A stretch of 64,000 nucleotides of DNA, taken from Deroplatys truncata. Lineage: Eukaryota; Arthropoda; Insecta; Mantodea; Mantidae. Both the position numbers and the translations under genes were made by a program. How positions within the stretch are numbered: the stretch's first letter is position 1; every line of letters starts with the position of its first letter. Shown in pieces: positions 1 through 45,800 of this stretch. The stretch lies in NCBI GenBank assembly GCA_030765065.1, contig CM060989.1, forward strand, positions 57,922,001-57,986,000, written 5' to 3'. Below the pieces are notes generated by a model. That model saw nothing but the letters and a program-made list of their open reading frames with translations, was not told the DNA's origin and did no database searches.

Positions 1-2010
1 GCCTATCTAGCTATTCCCTCCTTTCCTTACGCAACCAACCTACCCACTCGCGTACTATGCCTGCCTACATACCTGACTGCCTCATTCCCTCCCTCACGCA
101 ACCTATCAGCCACTGTGCCTACCTACCTACTTCTTTCCCTCCGTTACCCAACCACCCGCCACCTAATTCCCTACCTCACCCAATACCTGCCCACCCGTCC
201 TCCCTGCCTGCCTTCCTACCTCCCTCCTTACCCAAGCTACCCCACCCACCCGACCACCTTACCTGTATGTCTACCTCCCACCTCCCTTACCCAACGTACC
301 TACCTGCCCACCCTGCCTGATGCCTACCTACTTACTAACCAAACTCCCCACCCACCCGCCTAACCCATTTCCCTACCTTCTCCCCTGTATACCTTTTCTT
401 ACTCAAACTACCAACCCACCCATCGTGCCTGCCTATCCATGCAAACGCTCATTCTGCCTATTAGTTCTCTCTCTTACTCAACCTGCCCACCCACACTGCC
501 TACCTCACCTGTATATGCTCCTCCCTTACCCAAACGCCCACCCTGCCTGCGTACCTAACTTTCTACCAATCTTCCTACTTTACCCAATCTACCTGCTCAA
601 CCACACGCCCCTCTGCCTTCCTACCTACTTGTTTTCTTTCCTACCCAACCTTCCTACTTAACTCCCTCCCTTATCCTTACCCGACCTACCTAGCCAGCCG
701 CCTCCCTTCCTCCCTGCCAGCCACCCTCTCTCCTCTCAGTCAACCTGCCTATCCACCTGTCTCCTGCCTACCCGTTTTTCTCTCTAACTTACCCAAACTA
801 CTTTCCCAACCTGCCACCCTCATCTTACGCTGTCTACCTAACTCCCTCCCTTACCAGCCTACCTACACACCCGCCCTGTCTACTTACCTCCCTCCCTCCA
901 TTACCAAACCCATCTGCCCATCCTGCCTGCCTCTTTATCCGCCTACCTCGCTTACCCAACCTACACACGCCTGCACTGCCGTCCTACCTACCCAGCCTGC
1001 CTACTTACCTCTCTCCTTTACCATCTACCACCACCTTACCTCACACCCAACCTACCGACCCACCCTGCTCGCCTACCTCCCTCCCTCCCTTAGGCAAACT
1101 ACCCATCCGCCCACCTTACCTGTCTAAGTACCTCCCTCCCACCGTTAACCAATTTACCTACCCACTTGTCCACCCTGGCTGCCTATCTACTTACTCCCTG
1201 CTTACCTTACGCAACTTACCTACCTACCCACTCGCCCTGCTTGCCTACCTACCTCTCTCTCTCTCTCTTATCCAACCTATCTACCAGTCACCCGCCCACT
1301 GTGCCTGTCTACCTACCTACTTCTCTCACTCTGTTACCCACCACCTGCCCACCCTACCTCCCTCCTCATCCAGCCTACCTACCCACCCACCCGCCCTTCT
1401 TACCTACCTAGCTACCTCCTTACCCAAACTATCCCAACCACTTTGCCTGTCTGCCTACCTACCTCCATCTCTCCCAAACTACTCACCCACCCGCCTACAC
1501 TCTTCCCTTCCTACCTACTTCCGTGTATCCCGTTCCTTACCATACTACCTACCCACCTGGCTACCGACACTGCCTACCTATCTACCTACCCACTCGCCCA
1601 CCCTGCCTATCTACCTCCCTCCCATACTCAACCTAACTACCTCTCTTAAACTACCTATCCATCTTGCCTATGTACCTCCCTCTCTTATCCATCCTGTATT
1701 CCTTTCCCAAGTGGTCACCCACACTCAACCTGTCTTATCTACTTCCCTCTTACCTAGTCTAACCGCCCACCCAACCTACCTATCCACCCTCCCACCCTGC
1801 CGATGTACCTCTCTCCCTTATCCATTCTTCCTACCTACCCGCCCACCCTGCCGATGTATCTCTCTCCCTTATTCTACCTGCCCACCCTACTCTCTCTCTC
1901 CCTTCCTTACCTAACCTACCCACCCTGCTCGCCTACCTAAGTACTTCCTTCCCTACCTACACCCCTCCCTTTCTGTCTGCTTGCCTACCTCCCTCCCTAC
2001 CCGTCCACCC
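1..2010. repeat. Degenerate pyrimidine-rich minisatellite
   Basis: About 2 kb in which the plus strand is almost entirely C and T with scattered A and very few G. Recurrent words such as CCTCCCTTACCCAACC, CCTACCTACC and CACCCGCCC return at irregular intervals of about 30 to 75 bases. Open frames across it give Pro/Leu/Tyr/Ser-rich peptides and are compositional, not genes. The minus strand is correspondingly G-rich (GGTAGG and GGGT words). The bias stops abruptly near 2010. Confidence 0.9.
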
Positions 2011-2686
2011 TGCCTGGTTAACCTGCGTTTGTGTAAACGTTTGTTTAGATTAATGAGGTAGACAGAAAAATAAGCTTTTGTAAAAATAATTAGCAGAAAA
2101 GATATAAAAATAAGTGATAGTGGATAGAGAAAGTTATGTGAGTGTACATCGGAGTTATCACTACTGTATGTACATACAAATACCTTCTATAACCTGACGA
2201 GGCAAGTACAGTCCTGCTTCGGAGAGCGTCGCTGGTATGCACACGGAACGGTCTGCCTTCTCCTTTGTACAGTCCAATTGGGAACAATTAGCAAGTTCAG
2301 TGGCATTTGTAATAGATATATTTTCTGAACTTCTTTCGTTTAATTACAAAACGAAGTAACATTCCAAATGACATGTCGAGCTTGCTCGTGAATAGCTATT
2401 TGTTTTACGTTCCATCATTAGCATTGTGAACATTATGCGATGCATTAAACCAGTAAATGAGACTACATAGCATTTCCTAATGTACGTATGTGGTTGTATT
2501 GCGTTATCGCCTTAAAAATTTAAAATCAAATCAACACAATCTCTCTTCAAAATTAATAAATTTAAAGGTAGTCGGTAATCAAGTCGAAAAAGGAATTTGA
2601 GCACTTTTTGTTATACCTGCCAAAATAACTAAAAATTAAATTAAATACAACTTCAATAAGTCGAATATTATATAAATTTAATTCAT
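2011..2686. other. Unassigned AT-rich region with one possible exon
   Basis: No repeat family or clear gene was recognised. On the minus strand a segment near 2208-2267 lies between AG and GT dinucleotides (..GGCAG/ and /GTTATA) and encodes PFRVHTSDALRSRTVLASS without a stop. It could accept the phase-2 junction left by the exon at 5218-5354. The donor is weak, so this is only a suggestion. Confidence 0.25.
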
Positions 2687-6118: not shown

Positions 6119-6494
6119 ATTGATGACTGGCATTTAGAAAGTTATGAAAAACAAAACTGCAAATTAACCATTCATTTTGAAATGCATAGGTAATTATTAT
6201 TATTTTTATGGACCAAGTAGCTTCAACGGTCATTTTAGCCACGTGCCGCCACTGTTTTAGTTCAAACAGTACAAATTGTATAAAAACCAAAGTCCGGCAG
6301 CTTCGTGCGCTTTCTTTCTTTGCAAATAGATGCAAGGTTTTTTCGTGAATTTTTGCTTAGAACAGCTTACATTGTGGTATAAATGACCCATTTTCTCAAA
6401 CTATCGAAGATAGCTAAATTAAATTTAAGGATAATAACAACTTCTAAGTAATTGTTATTGAACTACTTTGGTACTAATAACATGATTAGCTATT
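6119..6494. other. Unassigned spacer between inverted FA copies
   Basis: AT-rich sequence separating two oppositely oriented old FA copies. No exon, RNA or repeat was recognised. A 72-codon minus-strand frame here shows no family resemblance. Confidence 0.35.
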
Positions 6495-11560: not shown

Positions 11561-11900
11561 TGGATTCGAAACCACGGTAGCTGAACTTTGAGCCTAACGA
11601 ATTTTGTACAATAACAATTCCCTAAAATGAGGTGTTCTGAACTTTTAAACGTTATAAACTCCAACTAGACGGGAATTTCAAACACGCATGCGTGATTTAT
11701 ATCCCGGACGTACGAGGTTACTCATTTCTTCTAAATCAATGATCGTTTATTCAGTTTGAAACAGCCTCTAAGTCGTTTTGTGGTACTTTTGTGGCATTAT
11801 AATATAGGCACAAGCACAACATTTTACGAATCGGAAGACTTCAAAACTGTTTCCAAACCATTTTGTATTTAATAGTAGGATGGTGGTGGTTAAGCAGCTA
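11561..11900. other. Unassigned sequence before the palindrome
   Basis: About 340 bp of mixed sequence containing ACACGCATGCGTG, a short palindromic run. No gene or repeat was recognised. It precedes the first base of the large palindrome. Confidence 0.35.
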
Positions 11901-12754
11901 TTTTTACTTTCTCTACTACGTATAGTAAGTAGGGGAAGTATTGTATTTCAACCAAAAATTGATACCGAGATTTCACCGGAAATACATGTTTTGAGATCCC
12001 CTGAATCCAAAAAAAGCATTTTTGGAAACATGTCCGTGTGTGTGTCTGTCTGTCTGTCTGTGAACAGCATAACTCAGAAACGAACAGTCGGATAAACACC
12101 AAACTTGGTATTTAGGTTCAGTATCTTCCAGAGATGCGACACGAAGGTTTTCAATAAAATACCCCCACCCCAGATTACCCTTTACATGGAACATTTTTCG
12201 AAAATTTTAATTTTCTCAAAAATGGCTCTAACGATTTTGATTAAAATATCATATGTTTAAGATATTTTCATGACAAATGAAATGTATATCTCGAATTTTT
12301 TGGAAATGTCTCCAAAAGTATTCTTCATTGTGAACGACTTTTGCATAACTGGTAAACCATAAGAGATAGACAAAATTTTACTACATAAAAAATACAGATC
12401 GCGTTAAAATACACAATTTATGTCATACATTTTGTTTGTTGAGTGAACATTTTCGAGATATTGCTTGTTATTCCCTTAAATTTTCCAATGCTTATACTTT
12501 TTCTCAAATGGGAATTCATTATTCATTATTTTATATCCTGGACATGCAAACAGAATGGAATACTCCACATAGCAGCCAGCTCTTAAAAGATTTAACTATC
12601 GCTTAAAGCCTACCAATTCCTCTTGCATCTACAAGAAAATTAGCAATACGATTATCATCTCGATTAACAGGAGGTATATGGAGAATAAGCGTTTGTAAAC
12701 ATAGTTTGTACAAGAGTAGGGAAAGTCATGTGAGTGCAACACATCAGATTTTTA
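11901..12754 (-). mobile_element. FA repeat, outer left arm of the palindrome
   Basis: Full-length FA, beginning TTTTTACTTTCTCTACTACG and ending CAACACATCAGATTTTT. The internal GT block is short (CCGTGTGTGTGTCTGTCTGT). The partner copy in the right arm has instead a run of about 30 CA units. Confidence 0.85.
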
Positions 12755-12834
12755 AGTTTCTATAACAGCACAAAAAAAATCCGAGGCAACAGGGCTTTTG
12801 AGCTTGGGATTTGTTTGCTAACTTGGAAGACATC

Positions 12835-12900
12835 TGTCACGTACTTTCTTGGCTGAGTGGTCAGCACGCGGACTTTGTAATTCAAAGTCCCGAGTTCACC
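12835..12900 (+). other. tRNA-like module, outer, left arm
   Basis: TTGGCTGAGTGGTCAGCACG resembles an A-box and D-arm, and CCCGAGTTCACCACG resembles a B-box, with spacing like a tRNA. No convincing acceptor-stem pairing was seen, so it is treated as tRNA-derived and not as a functional tRNA gene. A mirror copy lies at 15308-15373. Confidence 0.5.
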
Positions 12901-13740
12901 ACGCAGTCTTGGGGTTTTGTTTTTATAAACGTTTATTTTAAAAATAGATTTCAAAATTTTTGCATCAGGGGCATTCTTGACCCTCTGCAGGCCACGAAAT
13001 AGTTTAAATTTTTGTCCTAGCCTTAATAGTACTGAAATTACAGCCCTCTAAAGTAGGTTGCCATAAACTTTGACACGTCATAAAACGCAAATAAATAGGA
13101 ATTTCTAGAAACGAAGGCCAGATTCGTGATCCTGAGGTTCGAAACTATAAGTATACCAAATTGCATCGAAATTGGTGATGGTCATTAGTCAACTAGCCCG
13201 GCTGGAGGCTGGTTTTGGCTGTTTTCTGAAAAATAAAAGTATTAATATCTCTGCTCCTGGACCATATTTTGCACATTACGAACTACCAAAAAATTCGCCA
13301 AAAAATTAGCTCCCCATGAAAAATATGTTGGAGGCCGTATATTTATCCGTTCAGAAGTTATTCGTGTTCAAAGTTTCGAAAAGAGGTCCAAAATCCAAGT
13401 CTAAAGCCTTGCCATTTTTTGGCGTCCGAAAAAAAAATCGAGTTTTCAGTGTGATTTGAAAGCTGAAGACGAGTGGAATTCAGAACCGATCTTAATTTTT
13501 CGATATTTGAATATATAAAGTAGTTATGACGTAAAACGTGTGCATCTTGGATGAACTTTGAAGGGTAATAGTTCATGGTATAATCGAATAATCGGGTCAT
13601 GTGATATCTCGTTGGAATGCTGAAGATTAGCAGAATTCAGATCTGGCTTTAGTTTTTCGAAATTTTGAATTTTACAGAAGTTGTGACTAAAATATGCATT
13701 AAAAGCATTTAAGTACCACAACGAAAGTATTCTCTTCAAC

Positions 13741-14190
13741 AGCCGTGTTGTGGCGTAATAGTTAGAGTCACAGATTACGGCGCAGGGGTTCTAGGTTCGA
13801 GTCGCAAGTGTGTTTAAATGTTTTTTCTCTTTTAAATTTAATCTTCAGTGTACTAATAAAGATAAAAATCGAAGTCTAGTATTAACTACAGAATAGCCGA
13901 GCGGTTAAAAGCACTGTTTTAAAAACAAGAAGCATGGGTTCGATACTCCCTTTCTGCGTTGTTTTATTCTCATAAAATTCTCGATCCAATGTGCTAGCAA
14001 AGATAAAGTTGGGACTTGTGAGAGTGACCTGAAAGCAGGCATTTCAAGCTCGTCTCACTCTCCGCCAGAAGTTTCTTAAATTCCTCCTCCAATGTATTAA
14101 TACAGATAGAAATGGCGATTATATAGACAAGTGGCTAAACTAGCTGTCTGTCGCAACAAAGACCCCAGTTCAAATCAAGTGTATGACTTG
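13741..14190 (+). repeat. Tandem tRNA-like modules at the palindrome hinge
   Basis: Modules begin near 13741, 13887 and 14122, with a partial one near 14031. Each has an A-box-like part (TAATAGTTAGAGTCAC, TAGCCGAGCGGTTAAAAG, GACAAGTGGCTAAAC) and a B-box-like part (TAGGTTCGAGTC, GGGTTCGATACTCC, CAGTTCAAATC). The first three are followed by a shared spacer of the type CCARTGTRYTARYANAGATA. The second is the most tRNA-like. Its anticodon-arm region has a 7-base loop TTTAAAA, which would read as leucine UAA. Whether any module is transcribed is unknown. Confidence 0.55.
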
Positions 14191-14254
14191 CTTTCTATCT
14201 CTTACTTTATCTTCATTTGCACCTGCAGAAGGAACTTAAGAGGGAAAAATTTTA

Positions 14255-14470
14255 CGCAGGAAGTGAGATTCGAACCTAGAGCTCTTGTTTTTAAAAACAG
14301 TGCCTTTAACCACTCGGCTATTCTGTAGTTAATACTAAACTTCGATTTTTATCTTTATTAGTACACTGAAGATTAAATTTAAAAGAGAAAAAGCATTTAA
14401 ACACACTTGCGACTCGAACCTAGAACCCCTGCGCCGTAATTTGTGACTCTAACTATTACGCCACAACACG
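14255..14470 (-). repeat. tRNA-like modules, right side of the hinge
   Basis: These mirror the modules at 13741-13960. On the minus strand TAGCCGAGTGGTTAAAGGCA with TAGGTTCGAATCTCAC, and then the TAGGTTCGAGTCGCAAG module, are seen. The module nearest the axis is only about 80 percent similar to its partner. The next one outward is nearly identical. The two halves of the hinge are therefore different modules of one array and not a simple mirror. Confidence 0.5.
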
Positions 14471-15307
14471 GCTGTTGAAGAGAATACTTTCGTTGTGGTA
14501 CTTAAATGCTTTTAATGCATATTTTAGTCACAACTTCTGTAAAATTCAAAATTTCGAAAAACTAAAGCCAGATCTGAATTCTGCTAATCTTCAGCATTCC
14601 AACGAGATATCACATGACCCGATTATTCGATTATACCATGAACTATTACCCTTCAAAGTTCATCCAAGATGCACACGTTTTACGTCATAACTACTTTATA
14701 TATTCAAATATCGAAAAATTAAGATCGGTTCTGAATTCCACTCGTCTTCAGCTTTCAAATCACACTGAAAACTCGATTTTTTTTTCGGACGCCAAAAAAT
14801 GGCAAGGCTTGGATTTTGGACCTCTTTTCGAAACTTTGAACACGAATAACTTCTGAACGGATAAATATACGGCCTCCAACATATTTTTCATGGGGAGCTA
14901 ATTTTTTGGCGAATTTTTTGGTAGTTCGTAATGTGCAAAATATGGTCCAGGAGCAGAGATATTAATACTTTTATTTTTCAGAAAACAGCCAAAACCAGCC
15001 TCCAGCCGGGCTAGTTGACTAATGACCATCACCAATTTCGATGCAATTTGGTATACTTATAGTTTCGAACCTCAGGATCACGAATCTGGCCTTCGTTTCT
15101 CGAAATTCCTATTTATTTGCGTTTTATGACGTGTCAAAGTTTATGGCAACCTACTTTAGAGGGCTGTAATTTCAGTACTATTAAGGCTAGGACAAAAATT
15201 TAAACTATTTCGTGGCCTGCAGAGGGTCAAGAATGCCCCTGATGCAAAAATTTTGAAATCTATTTTTAAAATAAACGTTTATAAAAACAAAACCCCAAGA
15301 CTGCGTG

Positions 15308-15373
15308 GTGAACTCGGGACTTTGAATTACAAAGTCCGCGTGCTGACCACTCAGCCAAGAAAGTACGTGACAG
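15308..15373 (-). other. tRNA-like module, outer, right arm
   Basis: Mirror of the module at 12835-12900. On the minus strand the same TTGGCTGAGTGGTCAGCACG A-box-like and CCCGAGTTCACCACG B-box-like strings occur. No substitution was noticed between the two copies. Confidence 0.5.
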
Positions 15374-15452
15374 ATGTCTTCCAAGTTAGCAAACAAATCC
15401 CAAGCTCAAAAGCCCTGTTGCCTCGGATTTTTTTTGTGCTGTTATAGAAACT

Positions 15453-16151
15453 TAAAAATCTGATGTGTTGCACTCACATGACTTTCCCTACTCTTGTACA
15501 AACTATGTTTACAAACGCTTATTCTCCATATACCTCCTGTTAATCGAGATGATAATCGTATTGCTAATTTTCTTGTAGATGCAAGAGGAATTGGTAGGCT
15601 TTAAGCGATAGTTAAATCTTTTAAGAGCTGGCTGCTATGTGAGTATTCCATTCTGTTTACATGTCTAGGATATAAAATAATGAATAACGAATTCCCATTT
15701 GAGAAAAAGTATAAGCATTGGAAAATTTAAGGGAATAACAAGCAATATCTCGAAAATGTTCACTCAACAAACAAAATGTATGACATAAATTGTGTATTTT
15801 AACGCGATCTGTATTTTTTATGTAGTAAAATTTTGTCTATCTCTTATGGTTTACCAGTTATGCAAAAGTCGTTCACAATGAAGAATACTTTTGGAGACAT
15901 TTCCAGAAAATTCGAGATATACATTTCATTTGTCATGAAAATATCTTAAACATATGTTATTTTAATCAAAATCGTTAGAGCCATTTTTGAGAAAATTAAA
16001 ACTTTCGAAAAATGTTTCATGTAAAGGGTAATCTGGGGTGGGGGGATTTTCTTGAAAACCTTCGTGTCGCATCTCTGTAAGATACTGAACCTAAATATCA
16101 AGTTTGGTGTTTATCCGACTGTTCGTTTCTGAGTTATGCTGTTCACAGTCA

Positions 16152-16212
<61 letters not shown>

Positions 16213-16340
16213 GCATGTTTCCAAAAATGCTTTTTTTGGATTCAGGGGGTCTCAAAAGGTATATTTCCGGTGAAATCTCAGTATCGAATTTTTGGGTGTT
16301 ATACAATACTTCCCCTACTTACTATACGTAGTAGAGAAAG
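15453..16340 (+). mobile_element. FA repeat, outer right arm of the palindrome
   Basis: Full-length FA in the opposite orientation to the copy at 11901. It shares that copy's private variants, so it is the mirror duplicate. The internal microsatellite is expanded to (CA)n at about 16152-16210. The right end is CGTAGTAGAGAAAGAAAAAA. Confidence 0.85.
16152..16210. repeat. (CA)n microsatellite
   Basis: About 30 uninterrupted CA units sit exactly where other FA copies have a short CA/GT block. Apparent Thr-His and Cys-Val peptides here are repeat artefacts. Confidence 0.95.
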
Positions 16341-16785
16341 AAAAAAAACGAATAACAAGGAATATTTCGGAAGTGGTTCACTCGACAAACAAAATTATAT
16401 AATATAAATTGTGTGTTTTAAGGAGACCTACATTTTTTGTGTACAAACATTTTATCTATCTCTTACGGTTTACCAGTTATGCAAAATCCATTCACAATGA
16501 AGAGGACTTTTGGGGACATTTCCAGATAATTCAAAATTACATTTCATTTGCCATAAAAATATCTTAAACATATGATATTTTAATCGAAATAGTTAGGGCC
16601 ATTTTTGAAAAAATCAAAACTTTCGAAAAATTTTCCATATAAAGGGTAGTCTGGGGTGAGGGGATTTTCTTGAAAATCTTTGTGTCGCATCTCTGGAAGA
16701 TACTGAACGTAAATACCAAGTTTGGTATCTATCTGACTTTTTGTTTTTGAGTTATATTGTTCACAGACACACATCCACAGACATA

Positions 16786-17590
16786 CAGGGAGAGCCAAAA
16801 AACTACGAACCGCCTGCGCGGTGTTTTTCCTGTCCGCGTCCTCGGCGCTCGTTGCCGTCTCATAGAAAGACGCGGATGAAACCATACAACATTTTTAAAT
16901 CTACTTTTAAAGGCTTTACTTACCAACTTTATGAAAGGAGATGCTGAAACTGGTCACCGTCGTTGTCCATACATTTTTGCCACCTCTTTGGGAAACTATC
17001 ATCACTCGCCAAGTTTTTTCGAGTCAACAGTTGAAGCCCGTACATATGTGAATACAATTTTGCACCTCCTCATTTTTTTTAGAGAATTAACAGCCAGGGA
17101 GCGTGATTTTGCCTTTTTTCAACAAGACTCTGGAATAGCTTATACGGCCAATATTTCGATGAGAAAAATATGAAAGTGTGTTTGAGGACAGAATTATTAG
17201 TACAGATTTGTGGCCCCCTCGGTACCCCGACGACCTAATCCCCTGCGATTTCTATCTCTGGGGTAACTTAAAACATAAAGTGTATAAGACAAACCCACAC
17301 ACCCTGGAAGAATTAAAACAAAATATCCGCCAGGAAATTGCTAGCATTTTTCAACGTGAACTCGGAGAGTGATGGATAGTTTCCTAAAGAGGTGCCAAAA
17401 TGTATGGACAACGACGGTGGCTATTTCAGCATCTCCGTTCATAAAGTTGGTAAGTAAAGCCTTTAAATAGTTTTAAAAATGTATGTTTTCATCCGCGCCT
17501 TTTTATGATAGCGGCAGACGGCAGCGAGCGCCGAGGACGCGGACGGGAAAAACATCGCGCAGCCGGTTCGTAATTTTTTGGATCACCCTG
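16786..17590 (+). mobile_element. Family B Tc1/mariner-like element, internally deleted
   Basis: CAGGGAGAGCCAAAAAACTA at the left and GGATCACCCTG at the right are inverted ends. The inverted repeats are long, about 220 bp per side. They include CCGCGTCCTCGGCGCTCG, TTACCAACTTTATGAAAGG and the GAAACTATCATCACTCGCC segment. Between them is only the C-terminal third of a transposase. This is the most complete copy in the window, with relatives at 10331, 51280 and 55881. Confidence 0.8.
17080..17371 (+). pseudogene. Family B transposase C-terminal remnant
   Basis: It encodes RERDFAFFQQDSGIAYTA around the second catalytic Asp (usual form QQDGA). After a frame change near 17170 it continues VFEDRIISTDLWPPRYPDD and LIPCDFYLWGNLKHKVYK, the usual third motif RSPDLTPCDF being altered by substitutions. 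It ends ..RQEIASIFQRELGE. The N-terminal domain and first catalytic Asp are deleted, so it is non-functional. The family is the IS630/Tc1/mariner superfamily by these motifs. Confidence 0.75.
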
Positions 17591-24956: not shown

Positions 24957-25824
24957 TTTACTTTCTCTACTACGTATAGTAAGTAGGGGAAGTATTGCAT
25001 TCCACCCAAAAATTCGATACCGAGATTTCACCGGAAATACATGTTTTGAGACCTCCTGAATCCAAAAAAAGCATTTTTGGAAACATGTCCGTGTGTGTGT
25101 CTGTCTGTGTGTCTGTGTGTCTGTGAACAGCATAACTCAAAAACGAACAGTCGGATAAACATCAAACTTGGTATTTAGGTTCAGTATCTTCCAGAGATGC
25201 GACACGAAGGTTTTAAAGAAAATTCCCCCACCCCAGACTACCCTTTACATGGAACATTTTTCGAAAATTTTAATTTTCTTAAAAATGGCTCTAACGATTT
25301 TGATTAAAATATCATATGTTTAAGGTAATGTCATGAGAAATGAAATGTATATCTCGAATTTTCTGGGAATGTCTCCAAAAGTATTCTTCGTTATGAACGA
25401 CTTTTTCATAACTGGTAAACCATAAGAGATAGACAAAAGTTTACTGCACAAAAAATGTAGATCGCGTTAAAATACACAATTTATGTCATATACATTTCTT
25501 TTGTTGAGTGAACCGTTTTCGAGATATTGCTTGTTATTCCCTTAAATTTTCCAATACTTATACTTTTTCTCAAATTCGTTATTCATTTTTTTATGTCCTG
25601 GACATGCAAAGAGAATGGAATGCGCCACATAGCAACCAGCGTTAAAATATTTGACTATCGCTTAAAACTTACCATATTCCCCTTGCATCTACAAGAAAAT
25701 TATCAATAAGATTGACATCTCGATATCTCGATTAACATAAAGCATATGGAGAATAGGCGTTTGTAAAATTAGATTGTACAAGAGTAGAGAAAGTCATGTG
25801 AGTGTAACACATCAGATTTTTTTT
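24957..25824 (-). mobile_element. FA repeat, full length
   Basis: It begins TTTTACTTTCTCTACTACGT and ends GTAACACATCAGATTTTTTTT. All segments are present. A second copy of its tail follows head-to-tail (25825-26043). Confidence 0.85.
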
Positions 25825-26043
25825 ATGTCCTGGACATGCAAAGAGAATGTTATGCAACCAACGTTAAAATATTTGACTATCGCTTAAAATCTAGCATATT
25901 CCCCTTGCATCTACATGTACATTACCAATAAGATTGACATCTCGATATCTCGATTAACATGAAGCATATGGAGAATAAGCGTTTGTAAAAATTGTTTGTG
26001 CAAGAGTAGGGAAAGTCATGTGAGTGTAACACATCAGATTTTT
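25825..26043 (-). repeat. FA tail unit, extra copy
   Basis: About 219 bp beginning ATGTCCTGGACATGCAAAG, exactly where the FA tail starts after its internal oligo-T joint, and ending ACACATCAGATTTTTT. It duplicates only the tail of the preceding FA copy. Confidence 0.8.
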
Positions 26044-26636
26044 TCTGATTGAATACAGATATTTTCAAGCTTACTGTTGCTCTAATATCGCCGTCTTTGC
26101 ATACATCCATAGAAGCTCAAATATGCAGGTTACTGTCAACAAAGTGACAAATGACTGGAGCCATTAATCGATTTACCTCTATCGAGATAGTTGACGACGT
26201 GTCATACCATTGTTACCTATGCTCCGCCCGCTATAAGCATACTCGGGCATGCGTTTTGTGTGAACGAATCCCGTTTTGAACAGCATAACAATGGGGTTTT
26301 ACTGCCACGCCCCTGGCCAATGAAAATGGGAGTAAGTAGTTTGAAGATCAGAGTCTTTACCGGCGACATTCGATCTACACGAAACTTCAGACATATTGAG
26401 GTAGGATTTGAACCATTTTGGTTTTTATAATGCGTGGATATTGTAGAAAAGTGTTAGTAATAACCTGTGATTATTTTTGTAAGTGTACAATTTTTACTTC
26501 TTTCGTTCAATTACCTTTGTTTTGGTGTTTTATGATAGGGATAATGTATTTGAAATGTATTCATAAGTGTTGTTTTTCATTTCACATTGTGGTATTTTTC
26601 TTAACGACGAGAGCTAATTATGTATTTCAAAATACC
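26044..26636. other. Unassigned region
   Basis: About 600 bp of lower repeat content. 26205-26420 has moderate GC with CCAATG and an 80-codon plus-strand frame of no recognised family. It could be a host exon or promoter, but no splice borders or domain support that. Confidence 0.3.
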
Positions 26637-28367: not shown

Positions 28368-29137
28368 ATTTTTACTTTCTCTACTTACGTATAGTAAGTA
28401 GGGGAAGTATTGTATTCCACCCAAAAATTCGATACCGAGATTTCACCGGATATACATGTTTTGAGACCCCCTGAATCCAAAAAAAGCTTTTTTGGAAACA
28501 TGTCCGTGTGTGTGTCTGTGTGCCTGTCTGTGAACAGCGTAACTCAGAAACGAACAGTCGGATAAACACCAAACTTGGTATTTAGGTTCAGTATCTTCCA
28601 GAGATGCGACACGAAGGATTTCAAGAAAATCCCCCCACCCCAGATTACCCTTTACATGGAACATTTTTAGAAAATTTTAATTTACTCAAAAATGGCCCTA
28701 ACGATTTTGATTAAAATATCATATGTTTAAGATATTTTCATGACAAATAAAATGTATATCTTGAATTTCCTGGGAATGTCTCCAAAAGTGTTCTTCATTG
28801 TGAACGACTTTTACATAACTGGTAAACTATAAGAGATACACAAAATGTTACTAAACAAAAAATGTAGATCGCGTTAAAATACACAATTTATGTCATATAC
28901 ATTTTTTTGGTTGGGTGAACCAATTTCGAGATATTGCTTGTTATTCCCTTAAATTTTTCAATACTTATTTTCTCAAATGGGAATTCGTTATTCATTTTTA
29001 CTTTCTCTACTACATATAGTAAGTAGGGGAAGTATTGTATTCCACCCAAAAATTCGATACCGAGATTTCACCGGAAATACATGTTTTGAGACTCCCTGAA
29101 TCAAAAAAAGCATTTTTGGAAACATGTCCATGTATGT

Positions 29138-29180
<43 letters not shown>

Positions 29181-29643
29181 TGTGAACAGCATAACTCGGA
29201 AACGAACAGTCAGATAAACACCAAACTTCGTATTTAGGTTCAGTATCTTCCAGAGATGCGACATGAAGGTTTTCAAGAAAATAGCCCACCCCAGATTACC
29301 CTCTACATGGAACATTTTTCGAAAATTTTAATTTTCTCAAAAATGGCTCTAACGATTTTGATTAAAATATCATATGTTTAAGATATTTTCATGAGAAATA
29401 AAATGTATATCTCGAATTTTCTGGGAATGTCTCCAAAAGTATTCTTCATTGTGAACGAGTTTTGCATAACTGGTAAACCATAAGAGATAGACAAAATTTT
29501 ACTACACAAAAAATGTAGATCGCGTTAAAATACACAATTTATGTCATATACATTTCTTTTGTTGAGTGAACCGTTTTCGAGATATTGCATGTTATTCCCT
29601 TAAATTTTCCAATAGTTATACATTTTCTCAAATTCGTTATTCA

Positions 29644-30528
29644 TTTTACTTTCTCTACTACGTATAGTAAGTAGGGGAAGTATTGTATTCTACCCAAAAA
29701 TTCGATACCGAGATTTCACCGGAAATACATGTTTTGAGACTCACTGAATCCAAAAAAAGCATGTTTGGAAACATGTCCGTGTGTGTGTCTGTCTGTGTGT
29801 CTGTGGGTCTGTGTCTGTGTGTCTCTGAACAGCATAACTCAGAAACGAACAGTCGTATAAACACCAAACTTGGTATTTAGGTTCAGTATCTTCCAGAGAT
29901 GCGACACGAAGGTTTTCAAGAAAATCCCCCACCCCAGACTACCCTTTACATGGAACATTTTTCGAAAATTTTAATTTTCTCAAAAATGGCTCTAACGATT
30001 TTGATTAAAATATTATATGTTTAAGATACTTTTATGACAAATGAAATGTATATCTTGAATTTTCTGGGAATGTCTCCAAAAGTATTCTTCATTGTGAACG
30101 ACTTTTGCATAACTGGTAAACCATAAGAGATAGACAAAATTTTACTACACAAAAAATGTAGATCGCGTTAAAATACACAATTTATGTCATACACATTTCT
30201 TTTGTTGAGTGAACCGTTTTCGAGATATTACTTGTTATTCCCTTAAATTTTCCAATACTTATACTTTTTCTCAAATTCGTTATTCATTTTCTTTATGTCC
30301 TGGACATGCAAAGAGAATGGAATGCGCCACATAGCAACCAGCTTTAAAATATTTGACTATCACTTAAAATCTAGCATATTCCTCTTGCATCTACATGAAC
30401 ATTATCAATAAGATTGACATCTCGATATCTCGATTAACATGAAGCATATGGAGAATAAGCGTTTGTAAAAATAGTTTGTACAAGAGTAGAGGAAGTCATG
30501 TGAGTGCAACACATCAGATTTTTTTTTA
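29644..30528 (-). mobile_element. FA repeat, full-length unit of the array
   Basis: Head and tail are both present, from TTTACTTTCTCTACTACGTA to CAACACATCAGATTTTTTTT. The GT block is CCGTGTGTGTGTCTGTCTGT plus further TCTG variants. It is followed directly by two extra tails. Confidence 0.85.
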
Positions 30529-30757
30529 TGTCCTGTACATGCAAAGAGAATGGAATGCGCCGCATAGCAACCAGCGTTAAAATATTTGACTATCGCTTAA
30601 AAGCTACCATATTCCCCTTGCATCTACAAGAAAATTACCAATAAGATTGACATCTCGATATCTCGATTAACATGAAGCATATGGAGAATAGGCGTTTGTA
30701 AAAATAGATTGTACAAGAGTAGAGAAAGTCATGTGAGTGTAACACATCAGATTTTTT

Positions 30758-31038
30758 TGTCTTGGATATGCAAAGAGTTATAATCTGTGGCAAAGGGAAT
30801 GGTGCTGCACCTAGCAACCAGCTATTAAGAGATATGTATGTGCTTAAAGGCTACTGTTTTTCTATATTGCCCTTGTAAATATATTTTCCCCTTACATCTA
30901 CAAGAAAATTAGCAATAAGATAGAGTCTGCAAATGTTTATCTCGATTAACATGAAGTAGATGGAGAATAAGCGTTTGTAAAAATAGTTTGTACAAGAGTA
31001 GAGAAAGTCATGTGAGTGTAACACATCAGATTTTTTTT
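30758..31038 (-). repeat. Variant FA tail unit
   Basis: 280 bp, longer than the usual tail of about 220 bp, with extra text such as CTGTGGCAAAGGGAATGG and CCTTGTAAATATATTTTCCC. The same variant tail is found in the FA copy at 58983-59878, so at least two FA subfamilies exist. Confidence 0.75.
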
Positions 31039-39869: not shown

Positions 39870-42800
39870 GTAGGTACTTTGTGTCCATCCATACAGTAAT
39901 ACTGCAACATACCTTGGAAGTTCAGATTGGAAACCATGGCTATGTATTTTCTCGCGCTGTAGCTCTAATCCAGTTTCATTCCGTATATCATTTATACAGA
40001 GATTATCTGTGTCTACTTGGGCGTAAAACTAGACAAAGCACTTTTCAGAAACACATCAGAGACCTGTCGCGCGAGGCCACCGCCTCATAGTCCCCATGAC
40101 TTAGGTCGAGGATGTTAGTTCTTCTAAAGCTACGCCTTTTCAGAGCACTGATAATACTCATTCTAGCGCTCTAACATCTGGTGAATGGCACCAAACTCCA
40201 GAGCGATGGAGTTACAAAGGGTACAGATGACTTCAGGGACATTTACTCTGTATGCCGTTCCTTCCTCTGAGACTATTCATGAAGCCTCGTCTCTTCCATA
40301 ATGGAACATTAAATTAAGAGCCGGGTCGCAAAATTCTACGACTCTTTGTCACACAATCGGAGCGCCCTCTTTCAATCTCTTGGAGATTATAGCCCCAGAA
40401 CACGCCGCTTGAGATGTCACCGGGTTCTCCGTATGGCATGCGGACACCTACGGTAACAAAGGAGTAACTCCACCAGCAGTTAAAGCTGCTTGTATACAAT
40501 CCTCCAAGAGACACTTAAATCTCAAGACAAATCTTTGGGAATTACACCACACCGGCGGTACAGAAGGGCTGTGGCATCCTTATCGGCAGATATCAAGTAG
40601 AAATCTTGCTACCTCCAATGAATGCCCCATCTCGTCCTCATCCGTCAACCTACAACCGCACCTTGTCCAACAAGCGGTCAAACCCCTTACGGGAATGTAC
40701 GCTTCATAACGCTCTCTCCGGCTCACCCTCAGCCTGGAAACGCTTTGTCGTCGGCAACGACCTCCAACTCCCGCAGCGCGCCTAGCTAAAGCTGCCAACG
40801 TTTCCGCTTTAGTAAAAGCGCAATAGGATAGCTTTAATTACAAAATGTATTCGAAAAATTGTGTCCTGTTTCTAGACAAGCCTTATACCTTCTGAACACA
40901 TCGAACACTCGACGAACTACTGCAGCCGAAACATTGAGAAACATCTAATTCGTCCAGTGCATGCGGATTGTTTGCATGCACACATTATTTTTAACATTTT
41001 CAAAATATCTAGAACTGGAGAAGGCCTAGAACGATCATCCTTCTATCAAAAGACACTGAAGGATTTGTGGTATGCATGGAATAGCTATGGATATATTGTA
41101 GTGTAACATCACACCCGCAATGCTTGCTCAATTAAGTTTAAAGAAACAATGATTTATTTAAACCTGTGGGAGGCTATGAAGTATAACATTAGCATTTAAA
41201 TGTTGGAACCATAAAACGAAAGTAATTTCTTAGGTATCTGAAGTTATCTAAAGAACTGAAATAAATAAATAATAGAAGTCGTTAGCAAATTTCAACCCTA
41301 CCAATGTGCGGAATTTTGCTCCATAGGAATTGAGTTACATGTTGGTAAACGTACTCAAATAACGCTGTCGCACTTAAGCATACGTAAGTGACACTGTTCC
41401 CAGCAGAGATCGAAACCGCAATCTGACCTAGATTGTCGAACTCAAATAACTACAATCCCAGGACATCTAATTATTATACGGGGTCCATAAATCCAAATGA
41501 TTCAATATTTATGAAAACCTCATGATGATTCGCTCTTAACTTCCAAAACAACCCTTCTATAAGTTAAAACGCAATGAAACACATTTTGCCATCACCCGCA
41601 AAAACAAACAAAAAAGCAATGTGAAGATAACGTAAATTAAAGACTTCGTCCCATTTAACAATTTAATATTTTGAAACCACCCCAGGAAAAAAATCAAATA
41701 AGATAACCTTTAAAAGGCATGAACTGAGCAGACGTGAAAACGACCTTCAGTCAACAGTTTGAATCTTATAATACACGGCATAGGTTTTTAGAAGATAAAT
41801 ATCCCATATGACAACTGCGAGGAATCTGCAGGAAAGAAACCCTGGATTTTAAGTAAATAGCGTGATCATTTGTATCTTAACATTTTTTGTGGAAACTTGA
41901 TTCAAATTGTAGTTTGAATGATCGGAAATGTACTGCTAGGTATAGAATTCAATAAAATGAATATTTCTGTTTTATGATAAAATATTTTCCGTAAATATAG
42001 TGAATAGTTTTTATGATTTATTGTTGCCCGATACTTAAATATTTTGTTTAAATATAGTTTATAATATAAAAATAAAATGTCAGTAAATAATTGCATCAAT
42101 TTTGCTTGGAAATGCAGGAGAAAAGCCGCATGTGTGTGAGGTGTGTTCCAAGGGATTCTCGACCTCCAGCTCTCTCAACACACATCGTCGAATTCACAGT
42201 GGAGACAAGCCTCATCAGTGCAATGTTTGTGGGAAACGTTTCACGGCCAGTTCTAACCTCTATTATCATCGCATGACTCACACCAAGGTAAGCATATCCT
42301 ATTCTCGACACACATTGTCGTATTCACATGGTAGTAAGTCCACCAGTGTGATGTTTACGGGTAACGTTTCTAACTTGCAATCAGTACATTACCCACACCA
42401 ACGTATCTCCTCTCAATACACATTGTTGATTCACAGCGCAGCGGTGGCAAATATCATGTGTATTTGCACAGTTCTAATCATTAGTACCATCCTAAGCATA
42501 CCCTGTTTTCAACACAGGCTGTCGTATTCTCAGCGGTGGCAGACCTCATCAATGCAATGTCTGTAAGAAACGTTTCCCAACCAGTTTTAATTCCTACTAT
42601 GTCCGTAAGCACACCCTATTTTCAACACAGACTATCGTATTCTCAGCGGTGGAAGACCTCTCATCAATGTAATCTCTGTGGTAAGCGCTCCATTATTACT
42701 TCTAACCACTACCACCATCGTAAGCACGTCCTATTTTCAACACAGATTGCTGCATTTTACGACAGTGGCAGACCTCAAAATGCAATGCCTGTTTCCAGAC

Positions 42801-45800
42801 AGTTCTTATCTCTACTACCACCACCATAAAATTACCCTATTCTTAACACAGATTAGCGTATTTAAAACGGTGGGAGATCTCATCAATGTAATGTCTGTGG
42901 TAAGGGCTCCATAACCAGTTCTAACCCTCGTAATCACACCCCATTTTCAACACATATTGTTATATTCTCAGCGGTGGCATGCCTCATCAATTCAATGTCC
43001 GTGGGAAGCGTTTCATAACCATTTCTAACCACAACTACCATCCTAATCACACCCTATTCTCAACACAGGTTGTGGTATTCTCATCAATGCAAGCCTCATC
43101 AATACAATGTGGGAAGCGTTTCACACTCATTTCTAAACACTACTACCACCATCGTAGGCACGCCCTGTTCTCAACACATTGTCGTATTCTCAGCGATGAT
43201 TAGCTTTATCAATGCAACATCTTGGGAAAGCTTCACAATTAGTTCTAACCACTACTACCATCTTAGTCACGCCCTATTCTCAGCGAAGTTTGCCACATTC
43301 AGAGCGGTGAAAGCCTCGTCAATACAATGTCTGTGGGAAACGTTTTATAACTAGCTCTAACCTCTACCATAAGCATACCATATTCTCAACACAAATTGTC
43401 GTTACACAGCGATTGCCTTGAGGCTTCATGAATACAATGTCTATGGTACATTTATCACAACCAGTTGTAACCTCTGCCACTCTGACCTAATCCACAGCAT
43501 GGCAAGTATAATTATTCTTTAAAAAATGTTACCTCTCATGTTAAACTAGCTAGCTCATGAAACACCTCTGTTTTTTTTTTGCCCGGTTATATCTCAGGAA
43601 GTTAGGAATAAAAAGGAACTTTGGAAAAAGATCAGATGGGATTCATGATTTTCATAGTACTGTTGATGCACAAGTTAACATTGCATTCGAGTAGCTTCTA
43701 ATCTTGGGCATAGAATTTTCCTAGAATTAACGGCCTGCTTTTACTTGCTTCTCGAAACCTTAAATGAATCGGTTAGTGTTGAAAGGAAACTTCTGCAGTC
43801 TTTAAGAAATGTTTGGTTTACATGTGATACTGCATATTATACTCGTAGATAGGGCCACCGTTTGGTGTTGACAGAAGACATCTACAGCCCACACCAAGGC
43901 TGTGAGAATCTCTGCGTGATAATAAACGGGGAAATGCTATAGATGTCACCTTGCTACACAATTAATCAAATCACCAAGAAAATATAATTTAAATTACTCC
44001 AATGCCATCAATTTATATGAAATACCTCCAATCCAAAAGTACTGCTAGCAAAGCTCGTCGTCAATGGCGTAGTCACGTATTCATTGAGATTGAGAAGTAT
44101 CCAACAAAATTTGAATATACTCGCTAAACATGCAATCACTAAGAGACAATATGAATGGCATTAGAAAAACCTAAAATCATCTCTTGAGCACCTGGACTAC
44201 TGGAGTGAAATTCTTACCAAACCAACAGCAGTCAGAGGGGAAACCCAAGATGAACAATGTGGCGTTCTGTTTTTGAGATTCTGGCAAAATGAAAATTGTA
44301 TTCATAACATAAGCTGAGCGCTTGGAGCAATAGTATAAGATACTTAAAAAGATTGCTTTGGGTTTTCATTGATGTCTCAATTACAATGAGCGGCTTTAAA
44401 TCCTCAGCGACCAGCGGGTTATGGTCAATCTTTAATGCCAGCGAATTGATCCGCTACTTCTAGTGAGACAGATTTCATAAGTTTGCTATCAAATTCACTG
44501 GCATTAGCGCATAAAGTCGCATAATGTAATTGCTACTCATGAACGCACATAAAATTAAGCTAAAACTATGTATGCATGAACCATCGTGTTGGCAAAAGCG
44601 TCAGGTCCTTGCTTTTCAGATTAGCGGAAAAGTTTGAATCCCGGTTGATCCAAGCTATCTGCTAAGTTTCTTTGCCACCCTCGCGATTCTATTATATCAA
44701 ACAACTTTACCCCTATAGCTTCTAGAGTAAAATTTTAACTAGGCATGTCATTACCACAAAGACTCCAAACGAGATCTGCAGCATCAGAGACAGGTGACGC
44801 GTCAGAACATCACGGCGATTTTACGTATTGTACTAACAACGCCTTCTTCCTACAAATTCTTTGCTTAAAATACAATATGAACTCAAGAGACACAAGTTCA
44901 TATTTGAAATTGAGTTGTATACGTAGTGTGAGGAAGCTGTTTGTTTTTGCAGGAAAAACCCCATAAATGTGGACAGTGTGGTAAATCCTTTCCAACTCCT
45001 GGAGATTTGAAGGCGCATGTGTATATTCACACCGGGGCTTGGCCTTTCAGATGTGTGGTTTGCAACAGAGGTTTCAGCAAAGCAACCAATTTAAGAAATC
45101 ATGTCATGTTACATTCAGGTAAGCTTTGGAGTGTTATTTTCTTTTTAAAATGTGAGAAAATTAAGTAACTTATTTTTTGGGGGAAAAAGTGGTATGAAAA
45201 ATGGTTATTGTAAATATATACATTAAAGTGATATTCATTTGAACAAAACTGAAGAAATGTGATTTTACATTATAAGTACAATATATTTTAGAGTAGAAAG
45301 GCAGCCAATTAAACATTTTGAGGATAGGAACAAGGGTTGGCAGAATATTTTATACTGCGCTACGTGCTTCAACATTAAATCCATCATGAGTCTCCGATTG
45401 TGAAACCTGTTTGTGGTGTGTCGGATGTAAACAAAACACACTTTTGTACAGTACTAGCAATTGTCGCTAGATGTGTCTAGTGTGAAGTCTACTGGATGGT
45501 ACGGTAATACAGTCTTGCTCAGCACAGTACGTGCATGTATTTTTTAGTTTCTCATTGTGTATCAGTATTCATTAGTTGAGACAGTACGCACAAACTTGTG
45601 GTGCGATATATATTTTTTTGACAAGCAAATGAAGACGTTTCATAAAGTCAGGATTTCAATTATGTTCATGCACCGCTCTTGTTTTACTTATCTGTCACCC
45701 CATGCTCCTAACCTCAAAATGCTTAATTTCGTGAACTTTCTAATCTATAATTTTCTGTATCCTGTACATAAAGCTTACCTTGAGTTAAAAAAGTTGCTGA

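What the first reader, a model, noticed from the sequence alone, without database searches (positions are those of the whole stretch)
11901..16340. Near-perfect 4.4 kb palindrome that includes flanking repeats
Two arms of about 2 kb match in reverse complement. In the part compared base by base (13000-13440 against 14765-15195) there is one substitution and one 7 bp indel. The FA copies at both outer ends share private variants absent from other FA copies, so FA was already in place before the inverted duplication. This is either a very recent event, arms kept alike by gene conversion, or an assembly artefact from a foldback read. No transposase lies inside.
Basis: seen in the sequence. Interest (0 to 1): 0.8.

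Follow-up and report, generated by a model that had tools for sequence, protein, structure and literature searches.

The report
Chromosome-restricted palindrome family with tRNA-like boxes
The 4.4 kb palindrome is real and belongs to a family of mirror-image, apparently non-coding repeats that, in a 4.3-billion-base genome, were found almost only on one chromosome, where the two halves of each palindrome seem to copy each other.

Summary
The palindrome is real: arms 11900-13959 and 14254-16346, spacer 13960-14253. It is not an isolated event. Its core (12755-13959) recurs in the same genome (4.29 Gb, 818 contigs): I find 11 palindromes (this one included), 5 single-arm copies and three tandem arrays. 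All 43 DNA matches (40 of 222 candidates scored) and all 69 places of a diagnostic motif lie on the 134 Mb contig C15; a second motif gives one copy on C13. FA, the repeat at the outer ends, is spread over 15 contigs and looks like a HINE/DINE-1-type element. Arms within a palindrome are 92.5-98.6% alike; this palindrome differs from the ten others by 8-14% in the block. Substitution-free runs mid-arm reach 1.6 kb, with divergence rising towards the edges in most: arm-to-arm gene conversion on an old palindrome, rather than one recent duplication or a fold-back artefact. FA's private variants are shared only in its inner half. Each arm holds a 745 bp block without long reading frames, 3-9 times poorer in indels than FA, bracketed by tRNA-like modules with conserved A/B boxes. 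A chromosome-specific boundary or small-RNA role is inferred only.

The parts
11900..12753 (+). FA repeat, left copy (854 bp): HINE/DINE-1-like element found genome-wide
   Evidence: ends, subterminal motif, 3' hairpin and T-run; genome-wide spread
15454..16346 (-). FA repeat, right copy, inverted; outer half not shown to be sister to the left copy
12755..13959 (+). Core, left arm of the C15-restricted palindrome family
   Evidence: 43 of 43 genome matches on C15
14254..15452 (-). Core, right arm
   Evidence: 98% to left arm
13960..14253 (.). Spacer around the axis (294 bp), not palindromic
12925..13669 (+). 745 bp conserved block, left arm: no long ORF, indel-poor
14545..15282 (-). Conserved block, right arm (7 bp shorter)
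   Evidence: mirror of the left block by the alignment
12848..12910 (+). tRNA-like module T1 (A box TGGCTGAGTGG conserved, weaker B box, followed by a conserved GGTTTTGnTTTT)
13748..13805 (+). tRNA-like module T2 (A and B boxes)
13891..13950 (+). tRNA-like module T3 (A box TAGCCGAGCGG, B box GGTTCGATACT)
   Evidence: in this left arm not among the pairs, its right-arm mate is
15297..15359 (-). T1, right arm
   Evidence: mirror position
14409..14466 (-). T2, right arm
14264..14323 (-). T3, right arm
12304..13772 (.). Inferred most recently homogenised stretch (4 substitutions, 2 indels between arms); mirror 14442-15902

Best explanation
Shown: the window's palindrome is one copy of a family of palindromes found almost only on contig C15, whose arms consist of a 745 bp block without long reading frames between tRNA-like A/B-box modules, with whatever lies outside (here an FA element). 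Inferred from the pattern: the palindromic layout is ancestral, copies spread mainly to nearby places on the same chromosome, and gene conversion between the two arms of each copy keeps the arms alike, most efficiently mid-arm. In this copy (P01) the last conversion tract probably ran from inside FA (about 12304) to about 13772; the two FA outer halves may be separate insertions or an older shared one. Inferred, weakly: the block and the boxes are under selection, the boxes as Pol III/TFIIIC sites, so that the palindromes act as chromosome-specific boundary or chromatin-marking elements (about 0.25) rather than being only a self-perpetuating satellite. The confidence below is for the family and the gene conversion, not for the function.
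For: Core search: 43 of 43 matches on C15 (22 in eleven inverted pairs, 14 in a tandem array, 5 single arms, 2 fragments; 40 of 222 first-look candidates scored). Motif 2: 69 of 69 places on C15, complete list, 40 of them in one array, reversed control 0. Motif 1: 518 places, 100 listed; of the 86 with at most 1 mismatch 85 on C15 and one on C13. FA control: its 40 full-length rows lie on 15 contigs, 4 of them on C15 (40 of 4858 candidates scored). Arms of one palindrome form a clade in 8 of 11 palindromes (P02 only at 80/84). Block distance between P01 arms 0.1%, to the nearest other palindrome 8.4%. The longest substitution-free run beats uniform placement at P<0.05 in 8 of 10 palindromes tested. 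In the 3330 bp array four units agree to 0-0.3% while the inverted halves inside a unit are 71-79% alike: homogenisation follows the nearest partner. Sequence distance follows distance along C15 (Mantel r 0.62, p 1e-4, 17 loci). Indels per 100 substitutions: block 1.9-6.5, FA 12.4-21.9 by method. 88 A/B-box pairs in 20 loci against 0.7 in shuffles.
Against: Lower mid-arm divergence is partly expected from constraint on the block alone, so by itself does not prove conversion; P05 and P06 do not depart from uniform. In 3 of 11 palindromes (P04, P10, P11) the two arms are not a clade. Five loci (P12-P16) show one arm only within what was fetched. One copy on C13, holding most of an arm, breaks strict restriction; 418 places of motif 1 with 2 mismatches were not listed, and motif 2 misses diverged copies such as the C13 one. 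The indel contrast of the block with the arms' own variable stretches is smaller (4.3-7.0 per 100 substitutions at about 35% divergence). The tRNA cloverleaf is not conserved and the block shows no RNA-structure signal. No reads, RNA or chromatin data: function is unproved.
Confidence: 0.8

Rival explanations
1. A very recent inverted duplication, unrelated to anything else, created this palindrome once.
For: Arms identical over 837 bp.
Against: Ten other palindromes with the same core and orientation, 8-14% from this one in the block; graded divergence along the arms.
Confidence: 0.04
2. Assembly artefact from a fold-back read.
For: No reads were available to exclude it directly.
Against: An artefact should give arms alike from end to end; here the outer 400 bp carry 22 substitutions with R- and L-private states, a 40 bp microsatellite length difference and different outer flanks; eleven such loci, each with its own arm divergence.
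Confidence: 0.03
3. A non-autonomous fold-back (long-terminal-inverted-repeat) transposon whose movement is strongly local.
For: Dispersed inverted-repeat units without evident coding capacity; neighbours on C15 are closest kin.
Against: A transposon would be expected on other chromosomes of a 4.3 Gb genome, as FA is; the palindromic stretch reaches different distances beyond the core in different copies; tandem arrays of three periods. Target-site duplications were not tested systematically.
Confidence: 0.2
4. Each palindrome is transcribed through into a long hairpin RNA that is cut to small RNAs matching the tandem arrays on the same chromosome, which silence or mark them (compare the Drosophila 1.688X repeats and their siRNA).
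For: Long nearly perfect arms with spacers of about 0-0.9 kb and related tandem arrays on the same chromosome.
Against: No RNA evidence; arms and arrays differ by about 13-23%; a T-run that could end Pol III transcription follows T1.
Confidence: 0.15

Closest known systems
Drosophila 1.688X / 359 bp satellite repeats (PMC11228850, abstract and outline seen)
   Same: A non-coding repeat family concentrated on one chromosome, with dispersed copies and related large arrays.
   Different: There: X-linked, about 359 bp satellites, siRNA shown. Here: about 1.2 kb units in long palindromes, probably not on the X, with tRNA-like modules; no small-RNA data.
Sex-chromosome palindromes kept alike by arm-to-arm gene conversion (PMC8981503, PMC3723533, PMC7023750: listing and start of abstract seen)
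   Same: Inverted arms homogenised while copies elsewhere diverge.
   Different: Arms of about 1-3 kb, no genes seen inside, a dispersed multi-copy family, probably not a sex chromosome.
Fission yeast mating-type inverted repeats with five B-boxes, TFIIIC-dependent heterochromatin boundaries (PMC4502379, passages seen)
   Same: Inverted repeats carrying several B-boxes.
   Different: There the repeats flank one silent domain and the function is shown. Here many palindromes with A and B boxes, binding untested.
HINE/DINE-1 non-autonomous Helentrons (PMC4067079, passages seen), for FA only
   Same: Short subterminal inverted repeats (the 3' one about 39 bp from the end), an inverted repeat next to the 5' one, internal microsatellite, 3' stem-loop, T-runs at the borders.
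   Different: Autonomous partner not sought.

Membership tests
Gene-conversion palindrome | Arms more alike within than between copies | tested here: met
   8 of 11 palindromes have their arms as a clade; P04, P10 and P11 do not
Gene-conversion palindrome | Located on a sex chromosome | tested here: inconclusive
   A PAX pair suggestive of eyeless/toy lies on C16, no PAX match on C15 (13 matches); no male/female coverage
Gene-conversion palindrome | Arms hold genes | tested here: inconclusive
   No long ORF in the core of this copy (95 aa at most); two ORFs scanned without Pfam match; spliced genes not tested
1.688X-like chromosome-restricted satellite | Restriction to one chromosome, with dispersed copies and arrays | tested here: met
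   one copy found on C13
1.688X-like chromosome-restricted satellite | Small RNA from the repeats marks the chromosome | not testable with these tools
   no RNA data
TFIIIC-type inverted-repeat boundary | Several A/B boxes in the inverted repeats, more than chance | tested here: met
   88 pairs in 20 loci (4 are near-identical array units; a few boxes counted twice) against 0.7 in shuffles
TFIIIC-type inverted-repeat boundary | TFIIIC binding and boundary activity | not testable with these tools
   no chromatin data
Functional tRNA genes | Conserved cloverleaf | tested here: not met
   one Rfam tRNA match of 30.9 bits (gathering 29) in L018 among 16 loci scanned, none in the window
Fold-back transposon | Dispersal over chromosomes | tested here: not met
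Fold-back transposon | Common sharp termini | tested here: inconclusive
   palindromic stretches reach different distances beyond the core; P01's own edge is an FA copy
Fold-back transposon | Target-site duplications | not tested
   only the FA-bounded ends of P01 were printed
HINE (FA element) | subTIRs, 3' stem-loop, T-run borders | tested here: met
   exact 5' motif in 10 of 13 copies, exact 3' inverse motif in 7 of 13, hairpin in 9 of 13; four of the 13 copies are truncated at one end
HINE (FA element) | Autonomous Rep/helicase partner | not tested
   not sought

The most novel reading that the evidence does not exclude
One chromosome carries its own family of palindromic, non-coding elements with Pol III-type boxes, spaced 0.7 to 19 Mb apart from 1.9 to 57.9 Mb, plus macrosatellite arrays, acting together as a chromosome-specific identity or boundary system (chromatin domain, pairing or small-RNA marking) on what is probably an autosome; gene conversion within each palindrome keeps its sites in working order.
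Probability: 0.2. Interest if true: 0.85.

Novelty: new variant of a known kind. Interest (0 to 1): 0.62.

Why it matters
As far as the papers seen here go, long palindromes maintained by gene conversion are described mostly for sex chromosomes and genes. Here short palindromes without evident genes form a family tied to one chromosome, next to tandem arrays of the same sequence in which homogenisation runs between units instead of between arms. That contrast is a natural experiment on how concerted evolution chooses its partners. If the conserved block and boxes are functional, this would be a rare chromosome-specific regulatory repeat that small-RNA and TFIIIC data could test directly.

Tried and rejected
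Rejected or set aside: recent single duplication; fold-back artefact; coding block (open stretches of at most 95 aa touch this copy's core; one core ORF and one array ORF without Pfam match); structured RNA in the block (column shuffles, rough; the strong z-scores in the T2/T3 windows rest on energies of only -3 to -4); functional tRNAs. The idea that C15 is the conserved insect X was set aside: the PAX search put a pair suggestive of eyeless/toy on C16 beyond 639 Mb and nothing on C15; that insects' ancient X is Muller F is from PMC10715201 (start of abstract), and that eyeless and toy lie on Muller F is recalled. It is not settled that the organism is an insect: PF01395 gave nothing, but rang nowhere, so it says nothing; PF00379 and PF00812 did not complete. 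No exact motif match in viral contigs or genome contigs. A first indel script crashed after one figure (block 6.5); it was repeated with FA controls under several settings. Left out before counts: one extra partial copy beside P03 from the tree and alignments, P11, the diverged FA piece at 6488. Literature: ten searches; none of the listed titles or abstract starts describes such a family, which is no proof of absence.
Full report
The observation. The window holds an inverted repeat with arms 11900-13959 and 14254-16346 around a 294 bp spacer. The likeness is uneven: 22 substitutions in the outer 400 bp, 4 substitutions and 2 indels in 12304-13772, then rising divergence to the spacer. With differences placed at random, a clean run as long as the observed 660 aligned positions did not occur in 5000 trials.

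FA. The repeat at both outer ends was aligned with eleven further copies or part copies in the window; more diverged FA-like pieces exist and were left out. It begins near TTTTTACTTTCTCTACTACGTATAGTAAGTAG and ends near AGTAGAGAAAGTCATGTG...CACATCAGATTTTT, with a TG-rich microsatellite inside. This is the anatomy given for HINE/DINE-1 elements (PMC4067079, passages). In the genome FA has 4858 first-look candidates; 40 were scored, and their full-length rows lie on 15 contigs, 4 of them on C15. Left and right FA share 13 private variants in 12304-12753 but none in 11900-12300, where 4 are private to the left and 12 to the right copy. The outer-half tree is star-like and neither supports nor rejects the pair (p-AU 0.127); the inner half pairs them at 100/100. 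So a homogenised tract ends inside FA; whether the two FA insertions were separate is open.

The family. A search of the window's own genome with the core (12755-13959) gave 43 matches, all on C15 (134,151,755 bases): 22 in eleven inverted pairs, 14 in a tandem array, 5 single arms, 2 fragments; 40 of 222 first-look candidates were scored. Loci were merged from overlapping fetches: 16 dispersed loci and four array units. Eleven of the 16 are palindromes, with arm identities 92.5% (P02), 93.5 (P06), 94.4 (P10), 95.8 (P01, this window), 96.1 (P11), 97.4 (P04), 97.6 (P07), 98.0 (P05 and P09), 98.3 (P03) and 98.6 (P08). Five (P12-P16) show one arm in the stretch fetched; for P13 and P15 no second block appears within about 5 kb inward, for the other three only 1.2-1.5 kb was seen. 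The 16 loci lie at 1.9-57.9 Mb; two searches found none in the remaining 76 Mb of C15.

Chromosome restriction. Motif 1 (from the block, up to 2 mismatches) has 518 places, reversed control 0. The list stops at 100; the 86 with at most one mismatch are all shown, 85 on C15 and one on C13 (counted by hand). The C13 copy holds most of one arm at 76-83%. Motif 2 (up to 3 mismatches) has 69 places, all listed, all on C15, 40 of them in the 3330 bp array, reversed control 0. Motif 2 was chosen because the 767 and 1490 bp arrays lack it, so it counts palindromes, single arms and the 3330 bp array; it also misses diverged copies such as the C13 one. Arrays: 3330 bp units at 38.736-38.866 Mb, 1490 bp units at 9.641-9.676 Mb, 767 bp units from 12.02 Mb on.

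Concerted evolution. In the block region 12848-13700, palindromes P01-P11 differ from each other by 1.7-16.6% (P01 from the others by 8.4-14.3%); with single arms and array units the largest distance is 19.3%. Arms within a palindrome differ by 0-3.3% (P11's second arm is only partly homologous, was aligned badly and stands at 27-36%). Arms form a clade in 8 of 11 palindromes; in P04, P10 and P11 they do not. In the ten palindromes tested (P11 left out) the longest substitution-free run is longer than uniform placement gives at P<0.05 in eight, up to 1557 bp in P09; P05 and P06 do not depart from uniform. Constraint on the block contributes to this. The array is a useful contrast: four units agree to 0-0.3%, but the inverted halves within a unit are 71-79% alike. 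Distance between copies follows distance along C15 (Mantel r 0.62, p 1e-4, 17 loci). I infer old palindromes, local spread, and arm-to-arm conversion.

The content of the arms. Across 17 loci one stretch, 12925-13669, is strongly conserved while most of its surroundings are not. Open stretches of at most 95 aa touch this copy's core. Its indel rate per 100 substitutions is 1.9 (multiple alignment) or 2.5-6.5 (pairwise, three gap settings), against 12.4-16.6 and 14.0-21.9 for FA; the variable stretches inside the arms show 4.3-7.0 at about 35% divergence. No RNA-structure signal is seen in the block. Around it are three tRNA-like modules. Their A boxes (TGGCTGAGTGG, GTGGTGTAGTGG, TAGCCGAGTGG) and, for T2 and T3, B boxes (GGTTCGAGTC) are largely kept (T2 is missing in P10 and P11), while the part between them varies and no cloverleaf is kept. 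A/B-box pairs: 88 in 20 loci, 0.7 expected from shuffles (four loci are near-identical array units, and some pairs are nested duplicates). In the window palindrome 3 pairs pass; the rest of the window has 3 in 59.5 kb. A tRNA covariance model reaches 30.9 bits in one copy (L018, 16 loci scanned) and nothing in the window. The likeness of the boxes to Pol III promoters is from general knowledge.

What it may do. A chromosome-restricted, conserved, apparently non-coding palindrome with Pol III-type boxes works, if it works, like one of two known things: the 1.688X repeats that help mark the Drosophila X (PMC11228850, abstract) or the B-box inverted repeats that stop heterochromatin in fission yeast (PMC4502379, passages). 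Neither membership is claimed. C15 is probably not the conserved insect X, because a PAX pair that looks like eyeless/toy lies on C16 beyond 639 Mb and no PAX match on C15; that the organism is an insect, and that C16 is its X, are guesses from contig numbering and this pair. The plain alternative, a self-perpetuating chromosome-bound satellite or fold-back element, remains open.

Verdict. Real, not an artefact as far as sequence alone can tell, and not a one-off: an old palindrome family almost confined to one chromosome, kept alike arm to arm. Function unproved.

Noticed in passing
window 1-2030: About 2 kb of strongly strand-biased C/T-rich degenerate sequence (CCTACC, CCCTCC, ACCCAACC words; GC skew -0.74 over 1-2000).
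   Followed up: no
window 28368-30758: FA copies head-to-tail, each next one starting in a T-run inside the one before; TRF also and 233 bp duplications at 25632-26044 and 30287-30758.
   Followed up: partly
window 42472-43330: Diverged tandem repeat of about 109-113 bp, about 7 copies.
   Followed up: no
window 16350-16787: A diverged FA fragment (85%) directly outside the right FA, as if FA had inserted into an older FA-like copy.
   Followed up: partly
G000:C15 9.641-9.676 Mb (L032), 12.02 Mb onward (L031), 38.736-38.866 Mb (L027-L030): Three macrosatellite arrays of 1490, 767 and 3330 bp units, all containing the palindrome's conserved block.
   Followed up: partly
G000:C13:169782300-169784300 (L033): The one copy of the block found off C15.
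   Followed up: partly
L016:3093-3235 and L015:2943-3024: The palindromic axes of two family members score as microRNA hairpins on both strands, below Rfam's gathering scores.
   Followed up: no
L038:2806-4238 and flanks of P12 and P14: Beside single-arm copies there are further tandem repeats (111 bp unit, 13 copies beside P13).
   Followed up: no
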